From the NCBI GenBank assembly GCA_015655415.1, contig JAATFB010000022.1, positions 1 to 64,000 of the forward strand: 64,000 bases of DNA. Reading direction: 5' to 3'. The position numbers and the translations under genes were made by a program. The DNA is from Actinomycetales bacterium (GTDB lineage: Bacteria > Actinomycetota > Actinomycetes > Actinomycetales > Microbacteriaceae). The notes beneath the pieces are model-generated. The model was not told where the DNA came from. It searched no databases and worked only from the letters and a program-made list of their open reading frames with translations. Positions 13,986 through 38,933 of this stretch are shown here, piece after piece; within the stretch, counting starts at the first letter, position 1, and every line of letters starts with the position of its first letter.

Positions 13986-14528
13986 TCAGCGCACCGCCAG
14001 CATGACGTCGACGACGGCATCCAGCAGCAGGTCCACCTGCGCCTCCCGGTACCCGTGCCGCTGCTGACGGAACACGATCGTGCGCACCTCCTCGACCGAC
14101 ATCGGCATGCCGTCGCGGAAGTACCGCGTGAGGCGCCTCGCGAAGCGGTCGACCTCCCGCGTGTTGTATCCGATCGTGAAGATGCTGACGCGGTCGAAGC
14201 GATGCCCGTCCGGCCTGCCCAGCCGGTTGAGGATCACCTGCGCGGTGGCACGTGCCTGCTCCATCCAGCGACGCTCGCCCATCTCCTGACGTGCCTCGGC
14301 CCGTTCACGCGCGGCGAAGGCATCCTCCAGCCGCTCCAGGGCGCCGTCGACGACGTCGGGCTGGTATCCGCCGCGCTGCAGGGCGAAGCCCGTGCGACGG
14401 ATGTCCTCCGCCTTCAGCGGCACTTCGGGATCGCCCTCGTACGCCCGCCGGGCCAGTCGCAGGAAGCGGTCGACCTCCTCGGGGTCGTATCCGCGTTTGC
14501 CGCGCGCGACGGTCGGAAAGGTTGGCAC
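13986..14528 (-). CDS. DivIVA-repeat domain protein
   Basis: The 180-residue product holds repeated short DivIVA-type motifs: RGKRGYDPEEVDRFLRLARRAYEG at the start, GFALQRGGYQPDVVDGALERLED in the middle, GYNTREVDRFARRLTRYF, and QRHGYREAQVDLLLDAVVDVM at the end. Each has the G-Y-x3-x-V-D core seen in DivIVA membrane-curvature binding regions. Small multi-repeat proteins of this type sit next to cdsA in many Microbacteriaceae and are thought to be tied to cell division or polar growth; that role is inference. The stop and start are clean, and it lies about 90 bp downstream of cdsA on the same strand. Confidence 0.8.
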   Translation of the reverse strand: MPTFPTVARGKRGYDPEEVDRFLRLARRAYEGDPEVPLKAEDIRRTGFALQRGGYQPDVVDGALERLEDAFAARERAEARQEMGERRWMEQARATAQVILNRLGRPDGHRFDRVSIFTIGYNTREVDRFARRLTRYFRDGMPMSVEEVRTIVFRQQRHGYREAQVDLLLDAVVDVMLAVR

Positions 14529-14618
14529 GGGCCCATTCTCTCAGAGGCGCTCTGCACGACGAGGCCGCACCACGGCAAGTCCGTCGTCGGATGTGCGCAC
14601 GGCGGCCTCGCGTGGCGC

Positions 14619-15614
14619 TCAGCGGAACATCGGCTCGAAGACGACGTAGAGCACGTACGCGAGCGCGGCGGAGGGCAGGATCGAGTCCAGACGGTCGAGG
14701 AACCCGCCGTGGCCGGGCAGCCACGAGCTCATGTCCTTGATGCCGATGTCACGTTTGATGAGCGACTCGGTGAGGTCGCCCATCGTCGCGGTGACCAGCA
14801 CCAGCGCACCGAAGACGAGGCCGAACCACCAGGGGGCGTGCAGCATGAACACCGCAAGGACGACGCCGGCGACGAGCGCGGTGACCGCCGCGCCCGCGAA
14901 GCCCTCCCACGTCTTCTTGGGGCTGATCGTGGGCGCCATCGGATGCCTGCCGAACGACAGACCCGCGGCGTAGGCGCCGGTGTCGACGACCACGACCAGT
15001 ATCAGCGTCGCGAGGGTCCACCATTGGCCGTCCGGCTGCGCCACCAGCAGCACCGAGAAGCACGCCAGGAAGGGCACGTAGAGGAAGGCGAGCGTGGAGG
15101 CGGTCAGGTCGCGAAGCAACACCCCGCCGGGAGCCCGGCGTGCGACCGGGATGCCCTCCGCCAGCCGCCACAGCCACAGGAGCACGATCGCGGCGATCGC
15201 GACCAGCCACTCCCCCGAGGCGTGCAGATAGTAGGCGGCGGGAACGAGCAGGACGCCCACGACGGCCAGCGCGACCCGCGGAACCCGGAGTCCGGCGATC
15301 CGCAGCGCCGTGGCGAACTCGAACCCGGTGAATCCGGCGATGGCCGCCGCGAACACCATGAAGATCTCCTTCACGAAGATCAGGCTGACCAGCAGCAGAG
15401 CACCGCCGACGAGGCCGATCAGGACGGCGAACACCAGGTTGCGGCCGGTGCGCTGCCGGATCCTCTCGTTGGTGGCCTCCAGCTGGGCCTTCGTCGCCTG
15501 CACCTGCCGTTCGAGATCCGCCCGGCGCTCGCGCATGCGACGGCCGAACCGGCCGCCGTCCCGGCGCGCGCCATCGTCCGGTGCCCCGGGCGATTCGTCG
15601 GACCTCGGCGTCAT
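14619..15614 (-). CDS. cdsA: Phosphatidate cytidylyltransferase
   Basis: Makes CDP-diacylglycerol from phosphatidic acid and CTP, the branch point to phosphatidylglycerol, cardiolipin and phosphatidylinositol lipids. The 331-residue protein has a charged N-terminal 60 residues, then about eight membrane helices. The family signature is complete near the C-terminus: SLIKRDIGIKDMSSWLPGHGG followed by FLDRLD. ISPKKTWEGFAGA, another conserved block, precedes it. It directly follows frr on the same strand with a 6-bp gap, so both are probably in the pyrH-frr-cdsA transcription unit. Confidence 0.95.
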   Translation of the reverse strand: MTPRSDESPGAPDDGARRDGGRFGRRMRERRADLERQVQATKAQLEATNERIRQRTGRNLVFAVLIGLVGGALLLVSLIFVKEIFMVFAAAIAGFTGFEFATALRIAGLRVPRVALAVVGVLLVPAAYYLHASGEWLVAIAAIVLLWLWRLAEGIPVARRAPGGVLLRDLTASTLAFLYVPFLACFSVLLVAQPDGQWWTLATLILVVVVDTGAYAAGLSFGRHPMAPTISPKKTWEGFAGAAVTALVAGVVLAVFMLHAPWWFGLVFGALVLVTATMGDLTESLIKRDIGIKDMSSWLPGHGGFLDRLDSILPSAALAYVLYVVFEPMFR

Positions 15615-15620
15615 CTGCGT

Positions 15621-16175
15621 CTAGACCTCGAGGAGTTCCGCTTCCTTGCGCGCGAGAGCCTCGTCGACCTGGTCGATGTGCTTCTTCGTGATCGCCTCGA
15701 GCTCCTTCTCGGCGCGAGCCACGTCGTCGTCGCCCACCTCGGACTTCAGCGCGTCCAGCTCGTCCTTCGCCTTGCGCCGGATGTTGCGGATGGACACGCG
15801 GGCGTCCTCGGCCTTGGCGCGAACCAGCTTCACATACTCCCTACGACGTTCCTCGTTCAGCTCCGGCATGGTCACGCGGATGATCTGCCCGTCGTTGTTG
15901 GGGGTGGCGCCGAGGTTGGGCGTGTTGACGATCGCCTTCTCGATCTCCTTCAGCGCCGACTTGTCGTAGGGGGTGATCACCAGCGTGCGCGCCTCCGGGT
16001 TCTGCAGCGAGGCGAGCTGGCCAAGCGGCGTAGGGGTGCCGTAGTACTCCACGAGGATGCGCTGGAACAGCTGAGGGTTGGCGCGCCCGGTCCGCACGGT
16101 CGAGAAGTCGTCCTTGGCCACCTCGACGGCCTTGGTCATGCGCTCCGTTGCTGCGGCCAGTGAGTCGGCGATCAC
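15621..16175 (-). CDS. frr: Ribosome recycling factor
   Basis: Splits post-termination ribosomes together with EF-G. The 184-residue product has the standard RRF length and sequence: the N-terminal helix with [17 protein letters not shown], the beta domain ([38 protein letters not shown]), and the long C-terminal helices ([29 protein letters not shown]). The start is GTG at 16173-16175 with AAGGAGCC upstream. It sits between pyrH and cdsA as in most Actinobacteria. Confidence 0.96.
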
Positions 16176-24328: not shown

Positions 24329-24970
24329 TCACACCCCTCTCCTGAGATAGAGGGCGGCACCAAGCTGCTCGGCGCTGGGACGATCGTCGCCCGCGACGTC
24401 GGCGATCGTCCATGCCAGCCGGAGCGAGCGGTCGTATCCGCGCATCGTGAGGGCTCCGCGTTCCAATGCGCGGTCGAGCACCGCCGTGCTTCCGCGCGGG
24501 AGGCCTCTGGCCTGCTCGCGGAGCCAGGGGCCGGGCAGCTGCGCGTTGATGCGCCAGGGCGTGCCGCAGAGCCGCCGCGCGGCGACCTGACGCGCCCGGA
24601 CGACGATCGCGCGCGCCTCCGCGGTGCTGGTGCGAGCCGCTGTGGCTCCGATGGCCAGCTGTGCGGGCGTGATCCGCCGCACCGACAGCCTGATGTCGAT
24701 CCTGTCCAGCAGGGGGCCGGATATCTTCGCCAGGTACCGACGACGCACGGACGGGGCGCACGTGCACTCCGCGTCGAGCACGCCGTACTGCCCGCACGGG
24801 CACGGGTTGGCGGCCATGATCAGCTGGAACCTGCCGGGAAAGGTCGCACTCGCATTCGCGCGATGGATGCGGATCTCACCCGACTCCAGAGGCTGTCGCA
24901 ACACGTCGAGGACCGCCGAGGGGAACTCGGGCGCCTCCTCAAGGAAAAGCACACCAAGAGCCGGGCTCAC
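24329..24970 (-). pseudogene. comM: comM (yifB) C-terminal part, separated by the integrative element
   Basis: The Mg-chelatase-like AAA+ branch-migration helicase ComM is split. This part runs from the Walker B region (LFLEEAPEFPSAVLDVLRQP) to the natural stop, with the AANPCPCGQYG zinc-like motif, LDRIDIRLSVRR and the C-terminal YDRSLRLAWTIADVAGDDRP. The first codons upstream of about 24937 come from the element; they restore GVLFLEEAP and even supply a GTG start (24968-24970), so a fragment could be translated. It lacks Walker A and so cannot be an active ATPase alone. The other half is 12.7 kb away at 37621-38568. Confidence 0.9.
24918..24960. other. Left attachment-site hybrid (attL-like) in comM
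   Basis: The comM side reads GAACTCGGGC, then the shared core GCCTC at 24933-24937, then element sequence CTCAAGGAAAAGCACACC. Joining the comM side here to the comM side at the right end (core 37642-37646, then GTCCAGGAACAGCACGCC) restores codons for VLFLDEAPEF, the expected ComM Walker B. The core is minimal, as for serine integrases. The element arm resembles the replaced comM sequence at 14 of 18 positions. Confidence 0.8.
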
Positions 24971-25478: not shown

Positions 25479-28187
25479 TCAGCTACTTGCGATTGGTGCG
25501 AGAGCGCGGCGCCTCGACAGGAGCGCGACATCCTTTGAGATGACGTGGCGTTGGAGGTGAGCGAGAACGGCCTGCTGGGTCTCCGGAGTCCAGAAGATCT
25601 GGAGGCGTTCTCGAGCTCTTGTGACCGCGGTGTAGAAAATGGCGTGCGAGATGTCCTCTTCGTTGGCGTCGGTGATCACGATCTTGACCGAGTCGTACTC
25701 GAGGCCCTGTGCCTTGTGAATCGACACGGCGTATGCGATCTGGAATGGCACGTTCGTGTTGAGCGAGTCGTCGTCGGCGTCACTCGTGTCACGCTCGTAG
25801 ACGTTGAATCGGACTGTTGCGTCTCCGAGCCATTCAAGCTCTTCGCCATCTACGTCGAACGCACTGATGGTGCGGTCGAGTTCGACGTCGAACTGCACCC
25901 GGTCGGGATATGGCTGGATCCCGACGATCTTGCCTTTCAGGTTGTTGTAGATGACCCGCCCGAATCGTTCGGTCTCGTTGAAGAGGATGGGGTCGCCCAC
26001 TTTGTAGGTCGTGACGCCCCAGGTGATGCCATCCCCGGGGTTGCTGCTTTGAAGGAATCGGTTGATGTTGTTGATGCCGTAGAGGCCGTCATAGTTCAGG
26101 CAGAGGATGATCTCGTCCTCGCGTTGCGGCTCGAACAGCGACTCGTCGAGTGTTGTGGAGTAGCCGTTGTGTGCGATGACCTCGGCGATGTCGTCCTCGA
26201 GGTTGCGCACTTTGTCCCAGAACGCGAGGAGTGCCTGGTTCTTCGTGCGAAATGGTGTGGTGAGTTCGAACACCGAGTCCTTCGGGATGAAGGAGCGGAT
26301 TGCGTTGAACCAGTTGCCGAACTGGATCGACTCGATCTGGTAGACATCGCCGACGAGCACGAGCAGTTTGAATGAGGTCTTGTCCAGCACCTTGATGAGG
26401 TCGGCGTTGCTGACCGTGCTGCACTCGTCGATGACCAATAGGTCGTATTCCGGGTCTGTGGCCATGCGGTAGATCTGGCTGCTGATCGTTCGAAAGGTGG
26501 AGTCCTGGGCGGTGACTCGACGCTTGAGGTTGTCGACTGCCGGGTTGGTGTGTGCCAGGAAGAGCTTTTGCTTGTCGTTGAAGTAGCTGGCGATGTGGTT
26601 GACCATGGTCGACTTGCCCGTGCCGGCCGCACCGTAGATCAGGGCGATGCGGGACTGGTCGAAGAGACTCTTCAGCGCGTCGCGCTTGGCGTCGTCGTCG
26701 ATGCCGCGGGGCACCTCGTCCAGCCACCGCTGGACGGCCGTGGAGTATCCGTCGATGCCAGACGACGCGGATTCCTGCAGCTTTTCGATGATCGTGACGG
26801 TGTCATTTTCGTAGCCGCGGATGAAGACGTGGCCCATGTCCTTTTCAAGGCCCCGCCAGGCTCTGTGTTTGTAGTAGAGCGCCGCGTTGTAGGTAGCAAT
26901 CAGCTGATCGAGGTCGCCCAGCTCCTCGAGGTCCTCTACGGGCGTGTAGAGGATGCCGTGGCTCTCGACGTTGTTCTTCACACGCCGGGCGAGCAGCTCA
27001 TGGGCGCGCCCCGTCACGTCGAGGCTCTCGACCAGGTCCCAGTACCTGGGATTGTGAGCTCGGAGCGACGTGCAGAACGGCATGGTGTCGAACGGGATGC
27101 ACCCGTAGTCCAGCCTCAGGTTGGAGAGACGCTCACACCCGTCTCGGTTGTACTGCGGCTTGAGGAACTGGTTGTGCATCGCCAGCATGAGGTAGCGAAT
27201 GACGTTGTATCCCGGAGCCTTCCTCCGGATGATCTGACGCGCCTGATCCAACGCAGGAAAGATCTGGGGCCTAGTGACTCTGGCCGTCCCGGCTTCCCGC
27301 ACTTCGGCATATCGTTCGTCCGACATTTCCATCAGATCGAGCAGGCTGCCCCCGCTCGTGGTGAGTCCCTGCATGACATATCGATACTCGGGGGTTCCGG
27401 TTCGCACGTCGGTGGACAAGCCGAAGAGGCGAGCGAAGTTGTCGAACTCACAGGGGCGAACGGAGACCTCCCAGTCCCGAACGATGGTGATCGGCATACT
27501 GCGCCCGAGCACGTTGATCGAGTCGCCCTGCAGCGTCAGCATTGCCGCGTACTTGTCGGTGAGGTCGATGTCGGTGAAGCCGATGATGCGATCGAACTTG
27601 CTGACCTTGTTGACTGCGCGGTAGAAGGTGACCTCGTAGTAAATCCGGCCGCCGACGAAGAACGGCCGCGTCTTGTGGATGTAGTACCGCCGACCTCCTC
27701 CCTCTTGTGAGGCCAGTCGGCCCGTCGCTTGTATCCGCTCGGCGATCTTCTCGTGATATTCGCGGAGCGACGGGTCGAGGTCGATCGGGAAGGACTCCAG
27801 GTTGGCGAGCACGTCGATTCCGCATACATCGCGAAGTAGCGTGCGCACACGCAGGAAGTATTCGTAGTACTTCAGCATCAGACGTTCTGAGGCGTCGCCG
27901 TCCATGGTGTAATGCGAGGCACTGATCTGAATGAGCCTGTGGAACCGGTGCAGAAAGTTGATCTGCTTGTTGGCGGAGCCGACCCAAGCCAAGGCAGGTT
28001 TCGTCGCCTCGTAGGTGAACTCGATCGCTCCATCAGCGCTTTGAAGGCGAACCGCGACCGCCTCGATCAGGTTGCGTGCCTGCGAGAGGAGGTTTTGCGA
28101 CAAGAGCGCGCGGTCGTCCCCCAGCGCGGCAATGTTGTCACAGATCGCCTGATCGGAATTCCGTATCTGCTCATCGACGGTGGGCAC
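25479..28187 (-). CDS. SF1 DNA/RNA helicase with a large unassigned N-terminal region
   Basis: The 902-residue product has a GTG start with GGTGGAG upstream. Residues about 510-890 form a superfamily 1 helicase: IALIYGAAGTGKSTMVNHI (Walker A), LLVIDECSTVSNADLIKVL (Walker B), LVLVGDVYQIESIQFGNW (motif III), ELTTPFRTKN (motif IV), IAYAVSIHKAQGLEYDSVKI (motif V) and FYTAVTRARERLQIFW (motif VI). Motifs V and VI are closest to the RecD/UvrD-like UvrD_C_2 type. The first 500 residues, with RRYYIHKTRPFFVGGRIYYEV and MPITIVRDWEVSVRPCEFDN, are not a domain I can name. It is divergent from the 242-residue gene across 166 bp. A role in phage defence is inference from its neighbours. Confidence 0.85.
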   Translation of the reverse strand: MPTVDEQIRNSDQAICDNIAALGDDRALLSQNLLSQARNLIEAVAVRLQSADGAIEFTYEATKPALAWVGSANKQINFLHRFHRLIQISASHYTMDGDASERLMLKYYEYFLRVRTLLRDVCGIDVLANLESFPIDLDPSLREYHEKIAERIQATGRLASQEGGGRRYYIHKTRPFFVGGRIYYEVTFYRAVNKVSKFDRIIGFTDIDLTDKYAAMLTLQGDSINVLGRSMPITIVRDWEVSVRPCEFDNFARLFGLSTDVRTGTPEYRYVMQGLTTSGGSLLDLMEMSDERYAEVREAGTARVTRPQIFPALDQARQIIRRKAPGYNVIRYLMLAMHNQFLKPQYNRDGCERLSNLRLDYGCIPFDTMPFCTSLRAHNPRYWDLVESLDVTGRAHELLARRVKNNVESHGILYTPVEDLEELGDLDQLIATYNAALYYKHRAWRGLEKDMGHVFIRGYENDTVTIIEKLQESASSGIDGYSTAVQRWLDEVPRGIDDDAKRDALKSLFDQSRIALIYGAAGTGKSTMVNHIASYFNDKQKLFLAHTNPAVDNLKRRVTAQDSTFRTISSQIYRMATDPEYDLLVIDECSTVSNADLIKVLDKTSFKLLVLVGDVYQIESIQFGNWFNAIRSFIPKDSVFELTTPFRTKNQALLAFWDKVRNLEDDIAEVIAHNGYSTTLDESLFEPQREDEIILCLNYDGLYGINNINRFLQSSNPGDGITWGVTTYKVGDPILFNETERFGRVIYNNLKGKIVGIQPYPDRVQFDVELDRTISAFDVDGEELEWLGDATVRFNVYERDTSDADDDSLNTNVPFQIAYAVSIHKAQGLEYDSVKIVITDANEEDISHAIFYTAVTRARERLQIFWTPETQQAVLAHLQRHVISKDVALLSRRRALAPIASS

Positions 28188-28353: not shown

Positions 28354-29082
28354 ATGTTTGAGCGTGCGCGGGAATACCCCAGAGCGGTGACAGGCAATGG
28401 CGCGAACGACCCCGAAGGGTCTCAGCGGGCCGCCATCGAGTGGATTGCCGCGCAGCAGAAGGCGGTCGGGGGTCAGGTACTACTGTTCGTGCCTCAGAAG
28501 AGCACCCTGAATCACTCGGGCGATCTCATCGCCCAGCTCGCGAAAGTGCCCGGCGTCGCAGTCGGGACATGGCGAGGTTACGTATCGGGATGGTCAGGCG
28601 GGCCGGTACTCGCTGCCTGGCCGTCACGCGAGAAGCTCGCCGAGATCGCAGATGATCGCCGAACCCGAGCGCTTTGCGTCATTCCTTGGGTCGACGAGGA
28701 CACTACTCCGTGGGAACAGGCGTCACAGCCGGAACTACTCGCCGGCGCGCTCGCCAAGACCAGCGCACCAAGTCTGGATCCGGTTGTCATCGTCGGGCTC
28801 ACCCACCTGACCCGGATGGTCAATCACGCCAACAACCTCGCTGGCGCGCTCGACCACAGAGATGCCGTAGCGGTCCTCCGGGTGCTGCACCGCGGAAGGT
28901 ACGCGCTTCCCGCTGATGAGGTGTACGCCTGGGCGCTCGCAAACGGGTGGCCCGCGCGCGGAGCGGAGCGACTGCGGGAAATGGCGGAAAAGATCGATGC
29001 CGGCCGAACCGTTCAGATGAAGGGCCCGTCTCCGTTGCGCCCCGAGGTACTGAGCATGTGGAAAGCCGAGGCTAACCAGTAG
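28354..29082 (+). CDS. Unassigned 242-residue island protein
   Basis: I do not recognise this protein. The start at ATG 28354 (MFERAREYPRAVTGNG) has AAGGAG at good spacing; the track start at 28315 is less likely. Visible features: an alternating beta/alpha pattern in the first 160 residues with QVLLFVPQKSTLNHSGDLIA, TRALCVIPWVDEDTTPWEQ and LDPVVIVGLTHLTRMVNHANN, then a helical part with a winged-helix-like look (ALPADEVYAWALANGWPARGAERLREMAEKI). No transmembrane segment, Walker A or nuclease motif is clear. The last helices could bind DNA. It lies 194 bp upstream of the PIN-like gene on the same strand and may be its operon partner. Confidence 0.7.
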   Translation: MFERAREYPRAVTGNGANDPEGSQRAAIEWIAAQQKAVGGQVLLFVPQKSTLNHSGDLIAQLAKVPGVAVGTWRGYVSGWSGGPVLAAWPSREKLAEIADDRRTRALCVIPWVDEDTTPWEQASQPELLAGALAKTSAPSLDPVVIVGLTHLTRMVNHANNLAGALDHRDAVAVLRVLHRGRYALPADEVYAWALANGWPARGAERLREMAEKIDAGRTVQMKGPSPLRPEVLSMWKAEANQ

Positions 29083-29276: not shown

Positions 29277-30377
29277 ATGGCTCACCGCTCACTCAATTCG
29301 AGCGATCGCGAATACTTCCTCCCTCCGCTCATCTGGCCGACCGAGTTGAGAATGCCGGCGCGCCCCCCACTGCTGATTCACCTCGATCTCGCGCAATGGA
29401 TCCGCTTTGGCCGGGTTGTCCAAGGACAGGGTGAGCCCGCATACGCCGACCTCTTGGAGGCCCTCCGACAGGCGATTCAAGCGGGACAAGTCCGCATCGT
29501 CCTGACCGGTGCGCAATACAGCGAGGTCACGAAGATCAAGGATCCGGCTCAGCGTCGCGCGTTGGCTTCAGTCATCGAGGAGCTGACGGACTTCACCTAT
29601 CTCGTTAGCCATGTCGATGTCCTGCGGCTAGAACTCCAGACCACCCTCGACAACCTGACGGGAACACGCGGCCTCGGCTGGACGCCGACCGATTTGTTAG
29701 GTAAGTCAGCGTTAAACGTTGTGGGAAGAGTCGGCGGCTTGCAGATCATTCAAGAAGGCGAGGACGTGACCGCCAAGATGCTTGCCGCAGACCCTTCGTG
29801 GGCTGAGCGCCTAGCGACGATGAATCGGATGGCTGAGCGAATGCTGCTCCAAGGACCCGACGACCAGGAGGCGGCCGAGATACGCGCGGGCGGCTACCAG
29901 CCAGAGCTGGTTGAGCAGCAGATCGTCGACAACGCAGCCCTGGAGGCCGCGTGGTCGACGCAGATCGAGAAGTACCGCGGAACCTACGTCATGCGCGACC
30001 TGGTGATCGCTCGCTACCTCAACTTGGAGCTCATGGAAATGCTCGTGCATGAGCTGATGGCGCGCGGCATCCAGATCGACGACATCTTCACGACGCCCGA
30101 GGCAGGCACTCGATTCCTGATGAGCATGCCGTCCAGCGCGGTCACCGTGTCGATGAAGGCGCAATACCACCAAGACCCCAATCGACGCTGGTCCGCGAAC
30201 GATCTCTATGACATTGATGCTCTGGCGCTTGCGCTCCCATACTGCGACATCGTCTTCGCTGACGCCTCAGCTCAGGACGCCGCACTGCGACGCGGCCTCG
30301 ACACGCACTTCGACACCATGCTTCCTCGCCGCCCCAAAGAACTGACGTCGCTGCTGCGAACACTGGCGACCGTATGA
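29277..30377 (+). CDS. PIN-like nuclease domain protein (first gene of a coupled PIN-HEPN pair)
   Basis: A 366-residue soluble protein with GGGAGG at good spacing before its ATG. Acidic residues fall in a PIN-fold pattern: Asp37 after a beta strand (PPLLIHLDLAQWIRFGR), Glu83 (QYSEVTKIKD), and near the C-terminus Asp312/314 in DLYDIDALALALPYCDIVFADA with Asp324 and Asp329. PIN domains are Mg-dependent RNases, with the acidic cluster split between the ends as here; the central roughly 200 helical residues would be an unusually large insertion. The assignment rests on pattern only. The stop overlaps the HEPN gene start (ATGA), so the two are translationally coupled. No antitoxin-sized gene is adjacent. 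Confidence 0.68.
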   Translation: MAHRSLNSSDREYFLPPLIWPTELRMPARPPLLIHLDLAQWIRFGRVVQGQGEPAYADLLEALRQAIQAGQVRIVLTGAQYSEVTKIKDPAQRRALASVIEELTDFTYLVSHVDVLRLELQTTLDNLTGTRGLGWTPTDLLGKSALNVVGRVGGLQIIQEGEDVTAKMLAADPSWAERLATMNRMAERMLLQGPDDQEAAEIRAGGYQPELVEQQIVDNAALEAAWSTQIEKYRGTYVMRDLVIARYLNLELMEMLVHELMARGIQIDDIFTTPEAGTRFLMSMPSSAVTVSMKAQYHQDPNRRWSANDLYDIDALALALPYCDIVFADASAQDAALRRGLDTHFDTMLPRRPKELTSLLRTLATV

Positions 30378-31975
30378 GCAACTCGAACCCCGACGCCACG
30401 GATCCGCTTGATCCGCAAGAAGCCGATGCGCTGCTTGCGGATTTCCTGGCGCGCGCGGTGGCAATCCCGACCATTCCGAATGCCGCGGCTGAGCTTGACC
30501 AACTCGAACAGGAGATACTCGCTTCGCAGCTGAACTACCCCCACATCGTGCTCGCACTGTTCACCGTGAGCTCGGTGACCGTCAACATCGGCGACGACCT
30601 CGACGACGAGGCGCTCGTCACGACAGGGCTGGAAAGAGCGACAGCCCTGCTGTCCGCGACTCCTGACCTCGTTCTGATCTCCCAGCTGCTGCAGAACATC
30701 GCGAACGCAGAGTCGATCCTCTTCAGACTCGAAGCCAAGGAGTCAGCCGGAGGTGCCACGCCGGATCTGATTGAAAGCGACGTCCGCTTCCGCAGCGATT
30801 CACATGTCGTGACCGCACGTCGACTTTGGTCGTTCGTCTCACGTCCGCCGTCGGCGACACCCGACTCCGTGCGCTCACGCGCACTCTGCAACCTCGCCAA
30901 TGAACTGGATCTCGCAGGCCGCTGGGTCGAGGCATACTCGGCCTACGCGGACGCGCTCGAGGCAGAGCCCACAAACGGAAACGCCGCCGGCAACCGGGCA
31001 ATGCTCCTTCTTCAGCGCCTCAATGCCAGTCCACAGCAGGCCGGCCACATCGCCGCGGTGTATGAGAAGTGGGCCCGAAGGGCGAAAGAGCTTCGGGCCG
31101 AGACCGTCGCGATCGCCGGCGAGCACGCCGCGCAACTCTGGGATGCGCTGCCCCTCAGCGATGAGCCGGTGCTCGGGCACCTCAGCCACGACGGCGACCT
31201 TGACGACCCGTACCAGAGTTGGATCGTCGAGCATCGGCTTGCGCTGGTCCCGACCGTGGAGGGCCTGGGCTCGGACAGTTCACGCTGGGACACCGCCGAC
31301 ATCCTCGCCGCGGCAGCTGACAACGACGAAGGGCTGGCGCCGCGGATCTTTGCCGCAATGAATGTCCTGAAGGCAGAGTTCATCGTGGCCCGCCGCCTGG
31401 CCTTCCGAGGAGAGGTGATGACCTTCACCGAAGACGGGATGCAACACCCCGAAGACACGGGAGCCTATGGAGCAACCGGCGACGGCGCTGTCTACGGCGA
31501 GGGCCCGGCCACCCTGCTTCTCGCACAACGCAGTGCTCTCGATCTGCTCGACAAGATCGCGGTGACCGCGAACGAGCATTTCAAGACCTGTATCCAGCCT
31601 CAGAAGGTCGACTTCGCGTCCTTCTGGCGCGACACGAAGACACATGTTCTCCGACCGGAGGTCAGCACGATGGCTGGTCGACGCGCTCGACTTGCCCTCG
31701 CCGAGCTTCAGCGGGATCTCGCATCCGATGCGCTCTATCCAAACGCTCGCCTTCTTCGCAATGCCGGCACACACCGACTTGTCCACGGCACCTTAGGCGA
31801 GCCGACCGGCCCGACGAAAGAAACATTCAGCACCATCGACCTCATTGACCTGCAGGAGTCGACGATCGAAGCGCTATGGGTGGCGCGCGCCGCGTTCCTC
31901 TACCTCATCGACCTCATCGACGCCGAAACGCCAGAGCTTGATGGCCTGATGGCCGAGCTGCACTCTCAAGCCTGA
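30374..31975 (+). CDS. TPR plus C-terminal HEPN (LA2681-like) protein with Rx4H motif
   Basis: The 533-residue product has helical repeats in its first 270 residues (SRALCNLANELDLAGRWVEAYSAYADAL looks like a TPR pair, followed by NAAGNRAMLLL). Its C-terminal third is similar in layout to the LA2681-like HEPN domain: AEFIVARRLAFRGEVMTF, helices around LLDKIAVTANEHFKTC, then RNAGTHRLVHG with Arg462 and His467 giving the HEPN RNase motif Rx4H. HEPN RNases are frequent effectors in abortive-infection systems. Its ATG lies inside the stop of the PIN-like gene. Convergent with the large nuclease/STAND-like gene across 111 bp, with no clear terminator. The domain name is from memory of the family; the Rx4H is read directly. 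Confidence 0.75.
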   Translation: MSNSNPDATDPLDPQEADALLADFLARAVAIPTIPNAAAELDQLEQEILASQLNYPHIVLALFTVSSVTVNIGDDLDDEALVTTGLERATALLSATPDLVLISQLLQNIANAESILFRLEAKESAGGATPDLIESDVRFRSDSHVVTARRLWSFVSRPPSATPDSVRSRALCNLANELDLAGRWVEAYSAYADALEAEPTNGNAAGNRAMLLLQRLNASPQQAGHIAAVYEKWARRAKELRAETVAIAGEHAAQLWDALPLSDEPVLGHLSHDGDLDDPYQSWIVEHRLALVPTVEGLGSDSSRWDTADILAAAADNDEGLAPRIFAAMNVLKAEFIVARRLAFRGEVMTFTEDGMQHPEDTGAYGATGDGAVYGEGPATLLLAQRSALDLLDKIAVTANEHFKTCIQPQKVDFASFWRDTKTHVLRPEVSTMAGRRARLALAELQRDLASDALYPNARLLRNAGTHRLVHGTLGEPTGPTKETFSTIDLIDLQESTIEALWVARAAFLYLIDLIDAETPELDGLMAELHSQA

Positions 31976-32086: not shown

Positions 32087-35000
32087 CTAGACCCCGAGTC
32101 CGCGACGACGGGCTTCAGCACGTTGATCCTCCTGAAGGGCACTGCTTTCATACCCGTCAGCCAAACGTCTGAGAAGCGCGGCCGTTCGATCGTCGGCAGC
32201 TAGGGCAGCAGCTTGTTCGCGGTACTTTTTCGCGAGTTCACGCTCGGCGACGCCGCCATCCATGCTTCGCCACTCCACGCCTCGGTCGTTGTAAATGCCG
32301 CGCCCTATGCCTTGCTCAAGTGCTTCAATACGGAGGTCGTTGACGAGCTGGCGGATTGCTGTTGGTGGCCACTTGCCGTCGACCGGATCGTTGCCTGCCC
32401 GGCTTAGTAGCTCTCCGACGGCCCCCCAGGCGAGCGCCTTCTTGTTGTCGTCCCAATCGGCGATGCGCGTCGATACTTCATCGGACCAATCTCTGAGTAT
32501 CGACTCGTCAATCACTCCCGAGTCCTGCTCGCCGGGAATTGTTCTCCAGGATCGAAGAACCTTCCAGCCGCGTGAGACGATCTCGCCGTCTTGGCCCATG
32601 CGCGCCTCGAGCACTTCGACGAAACGTGCTGGCGATGTCGCCATCGAGCGGTGCAGCTCAAGCTGCCGACGGTCGTTTAGCGCGGGGAGGAACGCCCACT
32701 CAAGAAGGATGAGGCGATCCTGCATGGATGCGTCGCCCTGCAGTCTTATGGTCAGCCGATCGATTGAATCTCCCTCGGCCTTTGTACCTCCCGCCTGACC
32801 CGCCAGAAGGCTCTCCAGGGCATCAGCGATGACCTCGTTCGCGACTCCCTCGCCATGAACGTCCAGGGTTGTGACTGCCAACCCGGCCTGGCCACGCTCG
32901 ACGAGAGTTCGTGCGATCGCTTCGATTGTGGGCGCGCCTGCTTGCACAGACCACGGGTTAAATCCCGCCCAGAATGCTGTTTGGACGTCCTCGGTCTCCT
33001 GTCCGAGCTTTTCGGTTGCGCTTTCGATCGCCAAGAACTGGAAAAGGTGGGCTCTCGTCTTTGCGTTTGCGTTGGGCGTGGCGTCTAGTAGACGGACGGG
33101 CAAATCAGCATCGTCCCTGACGCGCCGGGCGAGGTAGCTCATGGCAAACCTTGATCGAGATGGCCCGGCACCGAGCAACGTCACAAGGGTTGTGTCATTC
33201 AGCGGAGTTCCTCGAGAAGCGAGTGCCCAGGTCAGAGTGCTCACGTCGGGGAGCTGTTCGGCGAACTCGAGGACCGACTCGAAACCCGAGCCCGATTCGA
33301 TCTCGTCGATGGCGGCTACCCGCAGTCGCTGTACTTCGGCGGTCTGGGCGGCCCAGTCTTCACCTCGTGGGAAGTCAATCAGCCGTGGGTATCCCGTGTG
33401 GAACAGCCATTCGTTCTTGTGTCGGGGATCAGTCGGGGTTAGGTCGTCCAAGAGTGCTCGGAGCGGCAAGAGATCCTCAGCGGGTAGCGACCAGTCGGCA
33501 GCGTCGAACTCGGTGTGGTCGGCGATCAGACTTCTCAGCTCTTCGTAGGGGACTTGCGTCTCCGCGTCGGACCATCCCGCCACGAGTTCGGCCAGCCGTT
33601 CGAGGACAAGCGCCCGCCCGTCCGAGCTGAGCTGCGGAAGCCAGCCGATCGCGGCCTTGGCATGCTCCGGGCTGGTTGCCCTGGGCAGTAGCACTGACAC
33701 AAGCTCAAACCTTCGGTCTGCCAGCTCCCCAGATGTCATGCCAGTAAGCCGGGGGCCCCACTGACGATAACGGGGTCCAGGTTCGATGACTCCGAAGCCG
33801 TCGTCGTCCACAAGGCCAGCGAAGGCATCCCAACTCGCGCCGCCATCGCTGTCAAGCTGCTCGGCAATCACTGCAAGTCTTCGGTCCCAGGGAACGGACG
33901 TGTTCCAGGTCACCGGCGACAGTGCTTTTCGGAGAGAGTCAAGCGGCCGATTGGACCAGGTCCCGCCTGGATCGATCGCGTGAAGTCGAAGCAAGACCGA
34001 CACCACCCGAGGAAGCGCAGCGGTCGACCATGAAAGGACATCGGCGGCGTGCACCAACTCGAGATGGGGCGACGAAGGCCCGAAGGTCACCGCCCCGCGT
34101 TCGCGCGAGTCCGTAAAGATCTGTTCGGGTGGCATTGCGGCGACGGCGTCTAGATAGTCGAGAACGGCGTCCGGTGCCGCTTCAGCAAGCAGCGACAGCG
34201 AGAACGGTCGTCCGACAAGAGCGGAGACTTCGAGCGGTTGAGCAGGAAGACCGAGTGCGTTGCGCACCACTCGAGCTGCGCTCGCGGAGGTCTTTGTTGC
34301 GGTGCGGGCGACATCTTCGTCGGCGCCCATGAGTGCCAGGACCATGCCGATGCCATCCGCGATGTCCCGCGAGTGCTGAGGTCCTACACCTTGTATCTGC
34401 GCCCGGATGCGTTCCGTGCCGTCCAGTTCGGCCAGCGGGTTTGCGGTTCCCAACACGGTTGCGACCTCGGACTCAAACACTGCGAGGTCCTCATCCGTGA
34501 TCGAATGCGACAGCAACCGCCAGGTGTCCGTCGGACTGACCAAATATCGATGCGCCTCAAACTCTGCGGTGGGTCGACCTTCGTTCTTCAGAATCGACGC
34601 CCAGGTTTCTGATGCATCAGCAGCATCTCCCCCGAGAAGCGCGGCGACAAATCGTCGATCACCTTCAAACTCGGCATTCCAACGAGCGACAAGTGCAAGT
34701 CGTCGCTCTCGCGCGTCTAGATCACGTGCTGCCCAGGAAGGCGTGAACAACGCCGGCTGAATTGCAAGCTCTCGGCGCAGGGTGGTGATGTCTCGACGTG
34801 CCAAGTAGCCCAATTCGTAAGCCCGATGAAACTCGACTCCTTGCGTTTCCAGAGCCTTTGCGGCGCCCTCGCTGTCGGTCGCCGGAATCTCGAGGGTGGA
34901 CATGTGGGCAGGATGCGTGAACACAAATACATGCGCGAGCGAGTTGTCGGGTATTGCGGTGACCCAAGAAGCGTTCGGGATCAGCGCCACGAGTGGACGT

Positions 35001-35791
35001 CCTGAGCTGAGGGCGGCGACGAACGCCGCCTCCTGTTCGAAAATGACCAGGCGTGCTGGGAGCGCCGAGAAGCGATCGTTATCAAGCGCGCGTTGCGCCA
35101 CCGCAGCAAACGTCGCTACCGCCGCCTCCCACTGCAATCCACCGCCACCAACGCTGGTAACTCCGGGGCTTGCCGAAAGGTCCGCGATCTGATCAACGAG
35201 CTCCTCTCGACCAGCAAGCAACACGGTGGCATCAAGCGAAACGTTCGTACTCTCGAGCCAGCGTTTCCACCACGCGGACCAGTGGATTTGACCGACTATC
35301 GGGATTCCCATGACCGACCGCATCCACGCCGAGGTGCCCGGCGCGATTGCGAGCCAACTGACGAGGCTTTCCACATTCAGCCCACGAACGGACTTCCAGA
35401 TCCCATCAGTCGTGTGCTTGTCGAACTCCTTACGCTTCGTCCACTTCTGCGTTGAGACAGCACGGTAGTGCACGTCCTTGCGGAGCATTCCCAAGGGGCC
35501 GTCGGTCCGCTTGAGGTAGTCGGACTCTGCCTTTCCATGGGCGCCTGTCTGCACTGAGGTTTCCCAGACCAACACGCCCTTGGGTACATAAAGCGATTCA
35601 CCGTTGGCCTCCACGACGAGGTCGAACCCCCCGGTACTCACTCCCGTCCCCGCGGGTGCGTCGAGAAAGACGATCTCTTCACCCGTCTCGACAATCAGGC
35701 GCGCGATCAATTCGGGAAGAACACCGTCGGAGTCGACAGCTTCAGTGCTCCAGCGAAGGATGTCATCACGAGAGATGGACTCCCAGGTCAT
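32087..35791 (-). CDS. Giant protein with PD-(D/E)xK-like N-terminus and STAND-like body
   Basis: 1234 residues, with a strong GGAGGACAC ribosome site. Residues about 1-170 resemble the restriction-endonuclease-like domain at the front of large defence proteins: LPELIARLIVETGEEIVFLD, GGFDLVVEANGESLYVPKG, VLVWETSVQTGAHGKAESDY, with Asp57 and Glu77 as likely metal ligands and Ser79 where a Lys is usual. The next part has a P-loop-like position (TSVGGGGLQWEAAVATFAAV) without GK[S/T], then ARLVIFEQEAAFVAALSSGR resembling a Walker B strand. The remaining 850 residues are helical repeat-like. The family of such proteins in Actinobacteria is uncharacterised as far as I know. A nuclease-sensor role is inference. 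It reads toward the HEPN gene. Confidence 0.72.
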   Translation of the reverse strand: MTWESISRDDILRWSTEAVDSDGVLPELIARLIVETGEEIVFLDAPAGTGVSTGGFDLVVEANGESLYVPKGVLVWETSVQTGAHGKAESDYLKRTDGPLGMLRKDVHYRAVSTQKWTKRKEFDKHTTDGIWKSVRGLNVESLVSWLAIAPGTSAWMRSVMGIPIVGQIHWSAWWKRWLESTNVSLDATVLLAGREELVDQIADLSASPGVTSVGGGGLQWEAAVATFAAVAQRALDNDRFSALPARLVIFEQEAAFVAALSSGRPLVALIPNASWVTAIPDNSLAHVFVFTHPAHMSTLEIPATDSEGAAKALETQGVEFHRAYELGYLARRDITTLRRELAIQPALFTPSWAARDLDARERRLALVARWNAEFEGDRRFVAALLGGDAADASETWASILKNEGRPTAEFEAHRYLVSPTDTWRLLSHSITDEDLAVFESEVATVLGTANPLAELDGTERIRAQIQGVGPQHSRDIADGIGMVLALMGADEDVARTATKTSASAARVVRNALGLPAQPLEVSALVGRPFSLSLLAEAAPDAVLDYLDAVAAMPPEQIFTDSRERGAVTFGPSSPHLELVHAADVLSWSTAALPRVVSVLLRLHAIDPGGTWSNRPLDSLRKALSPVTWNTSVPWDRRLAVIAEQLDSDGGASWDAFAGLVDDDGFGVIEPGPRYRQWGPRLTGMTSGELADRRFELVSVLLPRATSPEHAKAAIGWLPQLSSDGRALVLERLAELVAGWSDAETQVPYEELRSLIADHTEFDAADWSLPAEDLLPLRALLDDLTPTDPRHKNEWLFHTGYPRLIDFPRGEDWAAQTAEVQRLRVAAIDEIESGSGFESVLEFAEQLPDVSTLTWALASRGTPLNDTTLVTLLGAGPSRSRFAMSYLARRVRDDADLPVRLLDATPNANAKTRAHLFQFLAIESATEKLGQETEDVQTAFWAGFNPWSVQAGAPTIEAIARTLVERGQAGLAVTTLDVHGEGVANEVIADALESLLAGQAGGTKAEGDSIDRLTIRLQGDASMQDRLILLEWAFLPALNDRRQLELHRSMATSPARFVEVLEARMGQDGEIVSRGWKVLRSWRTIPGEQDSGVIDESILRDWSDEVSTRIADWDDNKKALAWGAVGELLSRAGNDPVDGKWPPTAIRQLVNDLRIEALEQGIGRGIYNDRGVEWRSMDGGVAERELAKKYREQAAALAADDRTAALLRRLADGYESSALQEDQRAEARRRGLGV

Positions 35792-35953: not shown

Positions 35954-37600
35954 TCACCATGTTGAACGCACGACAAGGCGTGCCTCGGTAGGAGCCTTTC
36001 CGGGCAGCGCGTCGATGCGGCGCACGAGGTGCCGCAGATACCGGCGCCGCTCGAGGATGTCCAGCTCTGCCCACCGGTCGGGCAGGGCCAGCTGCGGGCC
36101 GATCGGAGTGGACTGGAGCTCGATGGTGTCCAGTTCGCGCTCCAGCGTCTCGATACGCGCCTGAACATCGCCGATCATGCTCAACAGCACCTGCACCATC
36201 GCGCCCTGGAACCCGGCGGTGCCCTGCTTGTCGACCAGCGCTGTGCGCTCGGCGCGGGCGTGGCGCAGCTGCTCCATCACCGCGTCGAAGTCGGGCCGAC
36301 TACCGGCCGCGGCACGGCGCTGGCGGGCGGTCTCGAGCGCTTCCGGGGTGATCTGCGAGAAGAACCAGCCGAGCACGAACGCCTCGCCCTTGACCGCGTC
36401 GATCGTGCACCCACCCGAGCAGTTCCCCGGCCCCCGCAGCCGGTTGGCCATGCACCGGTAGGCGTGGGCGGGATACGTGGTGCCGTCCGGCGCCCTGCGG
36501 GTCTTGCTGTGGCCGTAAAGCCGCGCACCGCACTGGCAGTAGAGCAGCCCCGTCAGCAGCCATTGGTGCGTCCCCCAGGGGCGGATGGTGCGATTGTTGC
36601 TCGCCTCCGACAGCAGGTGCCGCACCCGCAGCCAGGTAGTCCAGTCACACGCCGGCTCCTGCGCGATCACCGGCTCACCCTGAGCGTCGCGGGCGACATA
36701 GTCCAGCAGGTCGATCTTCACCCCGCGTCGGTGCTCAGGGACCTGGAACATCCGATACCCGACCATCCGCGGCGAGCACAGCGAACGGTAGATCGTCGCC
36801 TCGTACACGTAGGCGCCGTCCGCCGTGGTGATGCCGTAGGCGTCCTTCCAGTGCCGGGCGATCTGCCCCAGGCTGCGCCCCTGCAGCACCATGTCCACCG
36901 CGTCCTTCAGCGCCTGGTGCTCCACCGGGTGCGGGACCAGCCGGATCCCGGTGCGCCCGAACTCGTCGGTCACCCGCGGTCCCGGCTGCCACCCGAACGG
37001 ACGGGTGCCGCCGTGATGGAACCCGGCCTCGGCCAGATGCCGCTTCGCCGCCAGCTGCCGCTCGCTCATCGAGTCCGTCTCGACCTCGGCCAGCAGCGCC
37101 TTGATCCCGGTCACGATCTTCGCGCCCGCCGTAGCAGTGTTCAGCTCCTCCGCCGAGTCCTGATGCGAGACGAGGTAGACGCTCGCGCGCTGGCACTCCG
37201 CGATCCACTCGATGCACTTCGTCGCGATGCGATTGGTGCGGTCCAGCTTCCAGAACGCGATCGCCTTCACCGTGCCGGACGCGATGCCCTCGTTCAGCTG
37301 CTTCCAGCCCTTGCGGCTGCGCGCGGCCGAAGAGCTCGCGGAGTCGTTGTCGATGAACTCCCCCATCACCGTCCACCCACCCTCGGCCGCCAGCTTCCGC
37401 ACCAGGTCGAGACGCTGCCGCTCGATCGCGTCGGCCTTGTCCTTGTGATACTTCGAGAGCCGCAGGTAGAGATAGATCGGCCGAGTACCCGGAAGGGGCT
37501 CACTCGGCCCCGTCCTGGCATAGGCCGGATAGACAACCGCCCGCATCGGACGGCTCGGTCGAGCATTACGACCTGGGATCTTCTGTTCGTTGGACTGCAT
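35954..37600 (-). CDS. int: Large serine recombinase (element integrase)
   Basis: The 548-residue protein integrates and excises the element. The N-terminal resolvase domain begins after a roughly 40-residue leader: IYLYLRLSKYHKDKADAIERQ with nucleophile Ser49, FIDNDSASSSAARSRKGW, and AFWKLDRTNRIATK with the catalytic Arg. The recombinase domain follows (HHGGTRPFGWQPGPRVTDE), then the zinc ribbon (LLYCQCGARLYG...YRCMANRL...CSGGC), a coiled coil (VMEQLRHARAERTALVDKQ) and the C-terminal WAELDILERRRYLRHLV. The ATG at 37598-37600 has AAAGGAGGT, a near-consensus site. It starts 20 bp inside the right junction and reads in the same direction as the comM 5' part, so host transcription could drive it. 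No excisionase-like gene is seen. Confidence 0.93.
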   Translation of the reverse strand: MQSNEQKIPGRNARPSRPMRAVVYPAYARTGPSEPLPGTRPIYLYLRLSKYHKDKADAIERQRLDLVRKLAAEGGWTVMGEFIDNDSASSSAARSRKGWKQLNEGIASGTVKAIAFWKLDRTNRIATKCIEWIAECQRASVYLVSHQDSAEELNTATAGAKIVTGIKALLAEVETDSMSERQLAAKRHLAEAGFHHGGTRPFGWQPGPRVTDEFGRTGIRLVPHPVEHQALKDAVDMVLQGRSLGQIARHWKDAYGITTADGAYVYEATIYRSLCSPRMVGYRMFQVPEHRRGVKIDLLDYVARDAQGEPVIAQEPACDWTTWLRVRHLLSEASNNRTIRPWGTHQWLLTGLLYCQCGARLYGHSKTRRAPDGTTYPAHAYRCMANRLRGPGNCSGGCTIDAVKGEAFVLGWFFSQITPEALETARQRRAAAGSRPDFDAVMEQLRHARAERTALVDKQGTAGFQGAMVQVLLSMIGDVQARIETLERELDTIELQSTPIGPQLALPDRWAELDILERRRYLRHLVRRIDALPGKAPTEARLVVRSTW

Positions 37601-37620: not shown

Positions 37621-38568
37621 CTAGGTGTGAGGCCCGGATGGTGCCTCGTCCAGGAACAGCACGCCGTGCGAGGCGCGCACGGCCGCACCGGGACGGATCT
37701 GCCCGCTGCCGCCCCCGATGACGGCGGCAGCGGTCGCGGTGTGGTGGGGCGCCTCGAAGGGAGGCCTCGTCACCAGATCGGTGACGACGTGACCGGTCAG
37801 CGACCTGATCGCCGTCGCCTCCAGTGACGCGTCGGCGTCGAGGTCGGGAAGCAGCCCGGGAAGGCGTTCGGCCAGCATCGTCTTGCCGGCACCCGGAGGA
37901 CCGAGCAGGAACATGTGATGGCCCCCGGCGGCGGCGAGGATGAGGGCGTCCACGGCCTCCTCGTTGCCGACGACATCGGCCAGGTCCAGTGGACGCCCAG
38001 GGTCGCTCTCCCGCTCCCCGGCCGCCGGCCAGGCCTCCACGGGCACGGGGTCGAGCTCGGCTCCGTGCCGGATGGCTGCCTCGCGCAGCGAGGACACCGC
38101 CACGATCTCCGATCCCGGCACGAGGCGCGCCTCCTGCGCATTCGCAGCCGGCACCATGACCCGCGCGTGACCGGCGCGCACCGCCCCTATCACCGATGGC
38201 AGCACCCCCGGGGTGGGACGGACCCGCCCGTCGAGACCGAGCTCGCCGACGTGCACCATCGACGCCACCGACTCGGCCGGCACATCCCCGGCGGCGGCCA
38301 GCGCCGCCAGGGCGATCGCCAGATCGAATCCGCCGCCGTGCTTGGGCAGCGCGGCCGGAGACAGGCTCACCGTGAGCTTGCGCGAGGTCACCGGCAGCCC
38401 GGAGTTCGAGGCGGCGGCCCGCACCCGGCCCCGGGACTCGCCGAGCGCGGCATCCGGCAGCCCGATGACCCAGAAGCCGGGAAGACCCGGGGAGATGTCG
38501 GCCTCCACGTCGACGACGCTCGGCGTGAGCCCGACCAGAGCCACCGCGCTCGTCCGTGCGACGGCCAT
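37621..38568 (-). pseudogene. comM: comM (yifB) N-terminal part, truncated at the Walker B motif
   Basis: This half starts MAVARTSAVALVGLTPSVVD (ATG 38566-38568) and contains the Lon-like N-terminal domain (LPGFWVIGLPDAALGESRGR, SPAALPKHGGGFDLAIALAAL) and the AAA+ Walker A (FLLGPPGAGKTMLAERLPG). After GVLFLDEAP it enters the element and stops at SGPHT, so the sensor and arginine-finger parts are lost. ComM promotes branch migration during natural transformation; disruption should impair it. The ATG overlaps the yraN stop (ATGA). The ORF track start at 38838 is a shadow extension. Confidence 0.93.
37628..37665. other. Right attachment-site hybrid (attR-like) in comM
   Basis: Element sequence GTGAGGCCCGGATGGT is followed by the shared core GCCTC (37642-37646) and comM sequence GTCCAGGAACAGCACGCC. 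On the coding strand ComM reads SHGVLFLDEAP, then runs into element codons SGPHT and a stop. Combined with the left site it predicts attB GAACTCGGGC-GCCTC-GTCCAGGAACAGC. Confidence 0.8.
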
Positions 38569-38933
38569 CAGCACACCCCCGTGAGGTGTTCGATCACGAC
38601 GTCGCGGTCCGATACTCCGGGCGGAGCCAGCACGGCGATCGCGTCGATCCGCAACGACCGGGGAGCGGAGTCGGACTCCTGGTACCAGAGCGAAGCCAGA
38701 CGGCGCAGCCGCGCGACCTTCGCCGGGGTTATCGCCTCGAACGGATGGCCGAACGCGGTCGGCGAGCGCGTCTTCACCTCCACGGCGACGATCGCTCCCT
38801 CGCGTTCCGCGACGATGTCGATCTCGCCCTGTGCACAACGCCAGTTGCGCGCCCTGATGCGGTAGCCGCGAGCGACCAGGTACCGCGCCGCGAGCCCCTC
38901 ACCGCGCTTTCCCAGCTCGTCCTTCTTCGCCAT
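38568..38933 (-). CDS. YraN/UPF0102 endonuclease-like protein
   Basis: A 121-residue protein with the nuclease-like fold of UPF0102. It begins MAKKDELGKRGEGLAARYL, and has ARNWRCAQGEIDIVAEREGAIVAVEVKTRS, whose E-x-D...E-x-K residues match a PD-(D/E)xK core. The biological role is not settled. It sits between the DUF2469 gene and comM, the standard actinobacterial order, with an ATGA overlap to comM. Confidence 0.9.
   Translation of the reverse strand: MAKKDELGKRGEGLAARYLVARGYRIRARNWRCAQGEIDIVAEREGAIVAVEVKTRSPTAFGHPFEAITPAKVARLRRLASLWYQESDSAPRSLRIDAIAVLAPPGVSDRDVVIEHLTGVC

What the first reader, a model, noticed from the sequence alone, without database searches (positions are those of the whole stretch)
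25479..28187. SF1 helicase with a 500-residue unassigned N-terminal region in the island
Seen: complete helicase motifs in the last 390 residues and a long N-terminal region (RRYYIHKTRPFFVGGRIYYEV, PITIVRDWEVSVRPCEF) that I cannot place in a family. Known: helicases with novel N-terminal modules (as in Hachiman, Gabija partner proteins, Zorya) are common in defence islands. It is encoded opposite the 242-residue gene with a shared control region.
Basis: partly seen in the sequence, partly recalled or inferred. Interest (0 to 1): 0.58.

Follow-up and report, generated by a model that had tools for sequence, protein, structure and literature searches.

The report
Mobile anti-phage candidate helicase, PDC-S53
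This is a DNA-unwinding enzyme with an unusual front half, carried by a mobile element and belonging to a family (PADLOC PDC-S53) already listed as a candidate bacterial defence against viruses but never, as far as the held papers show, studied; its relatives sit beside many different defence genes, so it is probably an interchangeable part of bacterial immunity.

Summary
In detail: window 25479-28187 (-) encodes an intact 902-aa SF1B helicase, with motifs in the last ~390 residues and a ~490-residue N-terminal region that matches nothing in Pfam or the PDB. The protein is not a new family. It matches PADLOC candidate PDC-S53 over its full length (1366 bits).

It rides a ~12.7-kb low-GC serine-recombinase element inserted in comM. 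Three same-genus genomes have comM without this insertion; a fourth carries a related element at the same site with GajA- and Dsr1-like genes instead.

Relatives (528 confirmed loci in 84,980 species genomes; 3 of 397 Actinomycetota) are patchy, cross phyla at up to 75% identity, and occur on plasmids, in prophages and beside restriction systems; hsdR lies within 6 kb at 9 of 80 loci, against ~0.1 expected. The 242-aa neighbour is not a constant partner (0 of 116 loci).

AlphaFold gives a confident N-terminal model (pLDDT 88.8): helical bundle, OB-like barrel, helices; Foldseek finds no significant known fold.

In sub-clades a different gene lies directly upstream: RmrA-type HTH-ImmA, OLD/AriA-like ATPase, or LmuA-like. 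Best reading: a horizontally moved DNA-sensing helicase effector with swappable partners, acting alone here. Defence is well supported; mechanism is inferred.

The parts
25479..28187 (-). PDC-S53 helicase CDS, 902 aa, GTG start
   Evidence: (PDLC05035, 1365.9 bits, residues 1-895 of 900)
27720..28187 (-). residues 1-156: helical bundle; R26, E101, R102, Y107 invariant
   Evidence: AlphaFold2 model, mean pLDDT 88.8; conservation
27465..27692 (-). residues 166-241: five-strand barrel, OB-like (tentative)
   Evidence: strands 166-178, 181-190, 201-205, 214-226, 229-241; recurrent but non-significant Foldseek hits to SSB/RPA/LEF-3 OB folds
26718..27464 (-). residues 242-490: mostly helical linker before the helicase core
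25578..26717 (-). residues 491-870: SF1B helicase core, RecD2/RecD/Pif1-like
   Evidence: motifs; Foldseek RecD2 3gpl E 2.6e-20, TM (target) 0.69; AAA_30, Viral_helicase1, UvrD_C_2
28354..29082 (+). divergent 242-aa gene; not a constant partner
24931..24952 (.). att-like junction, helicase-side end of element (GCGCCTCCTCAAGGAAAAGCAC), inside comM codons VLFLEEAPEF
37641..37662 (.). att-like junction, recombinase-side end of element (GTGCCTCGTCCAGGAACAGCAC)
35954..37600 (-). large serine recombinase, 548 aa, beside one junction
   Evidence: Resolvase, Recombinase, Zn_ribbon_recom
37621..38838 (-). 5' part of interrupted comM (Mg-chelatase-like)
24329..24970 (-). 3' part of interrupted comM

Best explanation
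A horizontally transferred single-gene anti-phage effector of the PDC-S53 family. Shown: a full-length family member, a RecD2-like SF1B core with all motifs, a conserved N-terminal region of no known fold, carriage on a comM-inserted serine-recombinase element, and a defence-associated, patchy, cross-phylum distribution. Inferred: the N-terminal bundle plus OB-like barrel binds single-stranded DNA, DNA ends or a phage replication structure; binding lets the 5'-to-3' motor load and translocate on phage DNA, disrupting replication or exposing it to host nucleases. Because no canonical nuclease motif was seen, I expect block or stripping, or handing over to a nuclease, rather than direct cutting. 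In some clades an adjacent same-strand gene (RmrA-type HTH-ImmA protease, OLD/AriA-like ATPase, LmuA-like protein) probably acts as sensor, antitoxin or nuclease partner; the window copy is of the solo kind. My estimates: about 0.8 that the role is defence, about 0.4 that this mechanism is right.
For: Full-length PDC-S53 match. RecD2/RecD as best folds of the full model. N-terminus without known relatives but conserved nearly as well as the core (mean majority-residue fraction 0.64 and 0.72 for residues 1-156 and 166-241, against 0.70-0.84 in the core). Same-genus genomes with uninterrupted comM and a GajA+Dsr1 element at the same site in G400. hsdR within 6 kb in 9 of 80 species loci, against 54 hsdR in 199 whole genomes; in G063 hsdR lies ~1.5 kb from PDC-S53. 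Neighbours include type IIG RM, SduA, DruA, SngC, OloA, McrC. Upstream partners RmrA, OLD/AriA-like, LmuA-like. Several partner origins on the tree.
Against: No PADLOC gene other than the helicase was found among the six island proteins scanned. A random sample of 20 nearest neighbours gave only 3 PADLOC hits, one of them merely RecD-like. Foldseek support for the OB barrel is below significance (E 0.06-2). No activity has been measured, and no paper naming PDC-S53 was found in the held library. PADLOC PDC families are candidates, mostly unvalidated (PMC12988326).
Confidence: 0.68

Rival explanations
1. It is an element-maintenance or transfer helicase (replication, mobilisation or stabilisation of the island, plasmid or phage that carries it), like the helicase part of TraA/TraI relaxases.
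For: Found on plasmids and phages; distant similarity to TraA/TraI helicases.
Against: No relaxase or replication domain in the protein. Carriers are unrelated elements, and the gene also lies beside chromosomal restriction loci. The related comM element in G400 lacks it, so the element does not need it.
Confidence: 0.12
2. It is a subordinate accessory of type I restriction (for example a clearance or repair helicase acting on cut DNA) rather than an independent defence.
For: Operon-like order hsdR, YgjP-like gene, helicase in L029 and L034, and hsdR one gene away in L092; hsdR always same-strand.
Against: Only 11 of 116 loci have hsdR within 6 kb; no hsdR in the window's own genome at E<=1e-40; hsdR neighbours are scattered over the tree.
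Confidence: 0.1
3. It is an accessory DNA-repair helicase (RecD2-like) with no anti-phage role, hitch-hiking in islands.
For: Best structural relatives are RecD2 and RecD.
Against: Far below the RecD2 equivalog cut-off (98.9 against 500 bits). Very patchy and rare (3 of 397 genomes), with strong enrichment beside restriction genes.
Confidence: 0.1

Closest known systems
PDC-S53 (PADLOC-DB v2 phage defence candidate)
   Same: Full-length HMM match, 1366 bits, residues 1-895 of 900; usually a solo gene
   Different: Nothing at family level; this report adds a fold model, the comM element and the recurring upstream partners
RecD2 / RecD (SF1B)
   Same: Helicase core fold and motifs; best Foldseek hits
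   Different: Long extra N-terminal region of unrelated fold; fails the RecD2 cut-off; accessory, not core
Gabija (GajA + GajB)
   Same: SF1 helicase; in three relatives an OLD/AriA/GajA-like ATPase lies directly upstream, where GajA would be
   Different: RecD2-like, not GajB; no GajA-like gene in the window element
RosmerTA (RmrA antitoxin + variable RmrT)
   Same: An RmrA-type HTH-ImmA gene lies directly upstream of the helicase in several actinobacteria
   Different: Absent in the window; a helicase acting as RmrT is only an inference

Membership tests
PDC-S53 | Full-length match to PADLOC model PDLC05035 | tested here: met
   1365.9 bits, 1-895/900
PDC-S53 | Single gene without an obligatory partner | tested here: met
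   Most loci have no recurring neighbour; island genes in 0 of 116 other loci, apart from a 21%-identical serine recombinase in one
PDC-S53 | Located among or inside known defence systems | tested here: inconclusive
   Met for many relatives; in the window element only the helicase itself hits PADLOC
PDC-S53 | Anti-phage activity | not testable with these tools
   Needs infection assays
RecD2 (TIGR01448) | Score above the equivalog cut-off | tested here: not met
   98.9 bits against 500
Gabija | GajA gene adjacent and GajB-type helicase | tested here: not met
   No GajA-like gene among the island proteins scanned; the helicase's best PADLOC model is PDC-S53, with GajB at 33.7 bits or less
RosmerTA | RmrA (HTH + ImmA/M78) gene adjacent | tested here: not met
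   Absent in the window; present beside relatives L083, L093, L007, L051
Hachiman / Zorya | HamB or ZorD-type helicase with partner genes | tested here: not met
   Neither is among the best 25 PADLOC hits of the helicase, and no neighbour in the island matches PADLOC

The most novel reading that the evidence does not exclude
PDC-S53 is a plug-in effector: one conserved helicase that works alone in most hosts but, in separate lineages, has been wired to different hub sensor or antitoxin modules (RmrA-type HTH-ImmA, OLD/AriA-type ATPase, LmuA-like protein, type I restriction operons). A DNA-translocating helicase would then play the toxin or effector part in RosmerTA-like, Gabija-like and Lamassu-like systems, with a new N-terminal DNA-recognition fold.
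Probability: 0.3. Interest if true: 0.68.

Novelty: new member of a known kind. Interest (0 to 1): 0.43.

Why it matters
The gene is already a listed candidate, but its function and fold were not described in the papers available here. A confident model with no known N-terminal relative, the evidence for comM elements that swap defence cargo, and the recurring partner genes turn a bare candidate name into a testable system. If partner swapping is real, it would show one helicase effector shared by several families of bacterial immunity.

Tried and rejected
242-aa gene as partner: rejected. Housekeeping N-terminal domain: rejected. HEPN (Rx4-6H) or PD-(D/E)xK nuclease in residues 1-490: no such pattern among the near-invariant residues (read by eye). 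KwaB: only 2 of 65 members hit weakly (best E 2.4e-4) and no Kiwa chain came up in the PDB profile search; not pursued. E. coli genomes: no DNA-level match to one gammaproteobacterial copy. Literature search for PDC-S53: none held. Viral fold library: no significant hit.

Full report
1. The observation. ORF 25479-28187 (-) encodes 902 aa from a GTG. SF1 motifs lie at residues 519 (Walker A), 547 (Ia), 587 (DECS, II), 613 (III), 822 (V) and 853 (VI). Homologues from many genera align from the first residues to the end. Residues 1-500 have no Pfam hit at E<=0.1 and no PDB sequence hit better than 0.029.

2. Identity. PADLOC model PDLC05035 (PDC-S53) matches 1-895 of 900 with 1366 bits; nothing else in PADLOC exceeds 91 bits. 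The RecD2 equivalog is far below its cut-off (98.9 against 500 bits). PADLOC PDC families are candidates found by a guilt-by-embedding approach, and most await experiments (PMC12988326). No held paper names PDC-S53.

3. Structure. With 57 sequences AlphaFold2 gives mean pLDDT 88.8 for residues 1-500 and 85.4 for the whole protein. Residues 1-156 are helical, 166-241 form five strands, 242-490 are mostly helical, then the helicase core. The whole model matches RecD2 (3gpl, E 2.6e-20, TM by target 0.69), RecD, Pif1 and Dda. Residues 1-500 alone have no PDB or viral match at E<=0.001. Weak hits are repeatedly OB-fold proteins (RPA70N, mycobacterial SSB, LEF-3, phage SSBs), so I call residues 166-241 OB-like, tentatively. 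Near-invariant N-terminal residues include R26, E101, R102, Y107, N129, E143, Y144, E185, K197, R244, E247, E267, R317, Y332, N339, H378 and E397; they form no nuclease motif that I recognise.

4. Carrier. The gene lies in a 59-66% GC stretch in a ~70% GC contig. The stretch splits comM between codons for VLFLDEAPEF: junction sequences at 24931-24952 and 37641-37662, with a 548-aa large serine recombinase beside the second. Same-genus genomes G397, G398 and G399 have comM in one long frame (547-628 aa), whereas in G400 the frame is only 217 aa. In G400 comM is split at the same place by another low-GC element of ~15 kb whose recombinase is 50% identical, with a full-length GajA (534 bits) and a Dsr1-like protein (158 bits) as cargo, and no helicase. 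The comM site is thus an integration hotspot for recombinase elements with swappable, at least partly defensive, cargo. This is independent support for a defence role of the helicase.

5. Distribution. 528 confirmed relatives in GTDB species genomes, 31 in IMG/VR, 5 plasmids and 2 phage records with near-full coverage, 3 of 397 Actinomycetota genomes, none in four other same-genus genomes, no DNA match in E. coli. Identity reaches 79% in Cryobacterium and 75% in Geomobilimonas, a different phylum. This is a rare, widely transferred gene.

6. Neighbours. The island's 242-, 366-, 533- and 1234-aa genes do not recur in 116 other loci. hsdR is within 6 kb in 9 of 80 species loci (plus two viral contigs), always same-strand. 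Background: 54 hsdR in 199 genomes. With ~0.82 Mb of flank in all and genomes of ~3 Mb (a rough mean), about 0.1 would be expected; detection methods differ, so the enrichment is approximate. Single cases: type IIG RM at L056 (the closest relative), SduA at L016, DruA at L018, SngC at L030, OloA and McrC at L014, type I RM at L015. These were picked by hand among large neighbours. An unbiased sample of 20 nearest neighbours gave 3 hits: SduA, AbiTii and one RecD-like.

7. Upstream partners. Sixteen full-length viral or prophage copies form one clade with a ~280-aa LmuA-like gene upstream (7-57 bp in nearly all). HTH-ImmA (RmrA) genes lie directly upstream in L083, L093, L007 and L051, with remnants in L008 and L082, needing about four changes on the tree. 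OLD/AriA-like ATPase genes abut or overlap the helicase in L063, L069 and L071. A YgjP-like peptidase sits between hsdR and helicase in L029 and L034, and a homologous small gene precedes the helicase in L092. RmrA antitoxins are known to pair with different toxins, and both ImmA and OLD-type ATPases are hubs of that network (PMC10440598). That the helicase is the effector in these pairs is my inference. The window copy belongs to a clade in which most copies are solo.

8. Verdict. Observation confirmed; interpretation partly supported; new member of a known candidate family. Defence role likely; mechanism (DNA sensing by the N-terminus, SF1B translocation, no own nuclease) inferred.

Noticed in passing
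L130 (G400:C11:66500-86490), genes at L130:5255-8923 and 14081-15742: A same-genus genome carries a related serine-recombinase element at the same comM site with GajA-like (534 bits) and Dsr1-like cargo: a comM integration hotspot with swapped defence cargo.
   Followed up: partly
window 29277-31975 (+): 366-aa gene of unknown family overlaps by 4 bp a 533-aa gene with TPR and HEPN_LA2681 domains; it looks like a separate two-gene module. Relatives of the 366-aa protein found in 2 of 296 other Actinomycetota genomes, 31-33% identical.
   Followed up: partly
window 32087-35791 (-): 1234-aa protein without any family match; two relatives (31-33% identity, full length) in 296 other Actinomycetota genomes.
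   Followed up: partly
L012, L013 and IMG/VR loci L100-L117: Temperate phages carry the helicase with a LmuA-like gene upstream and, in many, a small HTH repressor-like gene just downstream, on the strand opposite to the upstream replication genes: a phage-borne defence cassette.
   Followed up: partly
L063:4969-13332: hsdR, OLD-like ATPase, PDC-S53 and a 212-aa gene follow one another with 4-bp overlaps, as in a tight operon.
   Followed up: no
L007 (Arthrobacter plasmid), L118: Helicase copies broken or truncated (annotated as two genes in the Arthrobacter plasmid), with an intact RmrA-type gene next to the broken one in L007.
   Followed up: no
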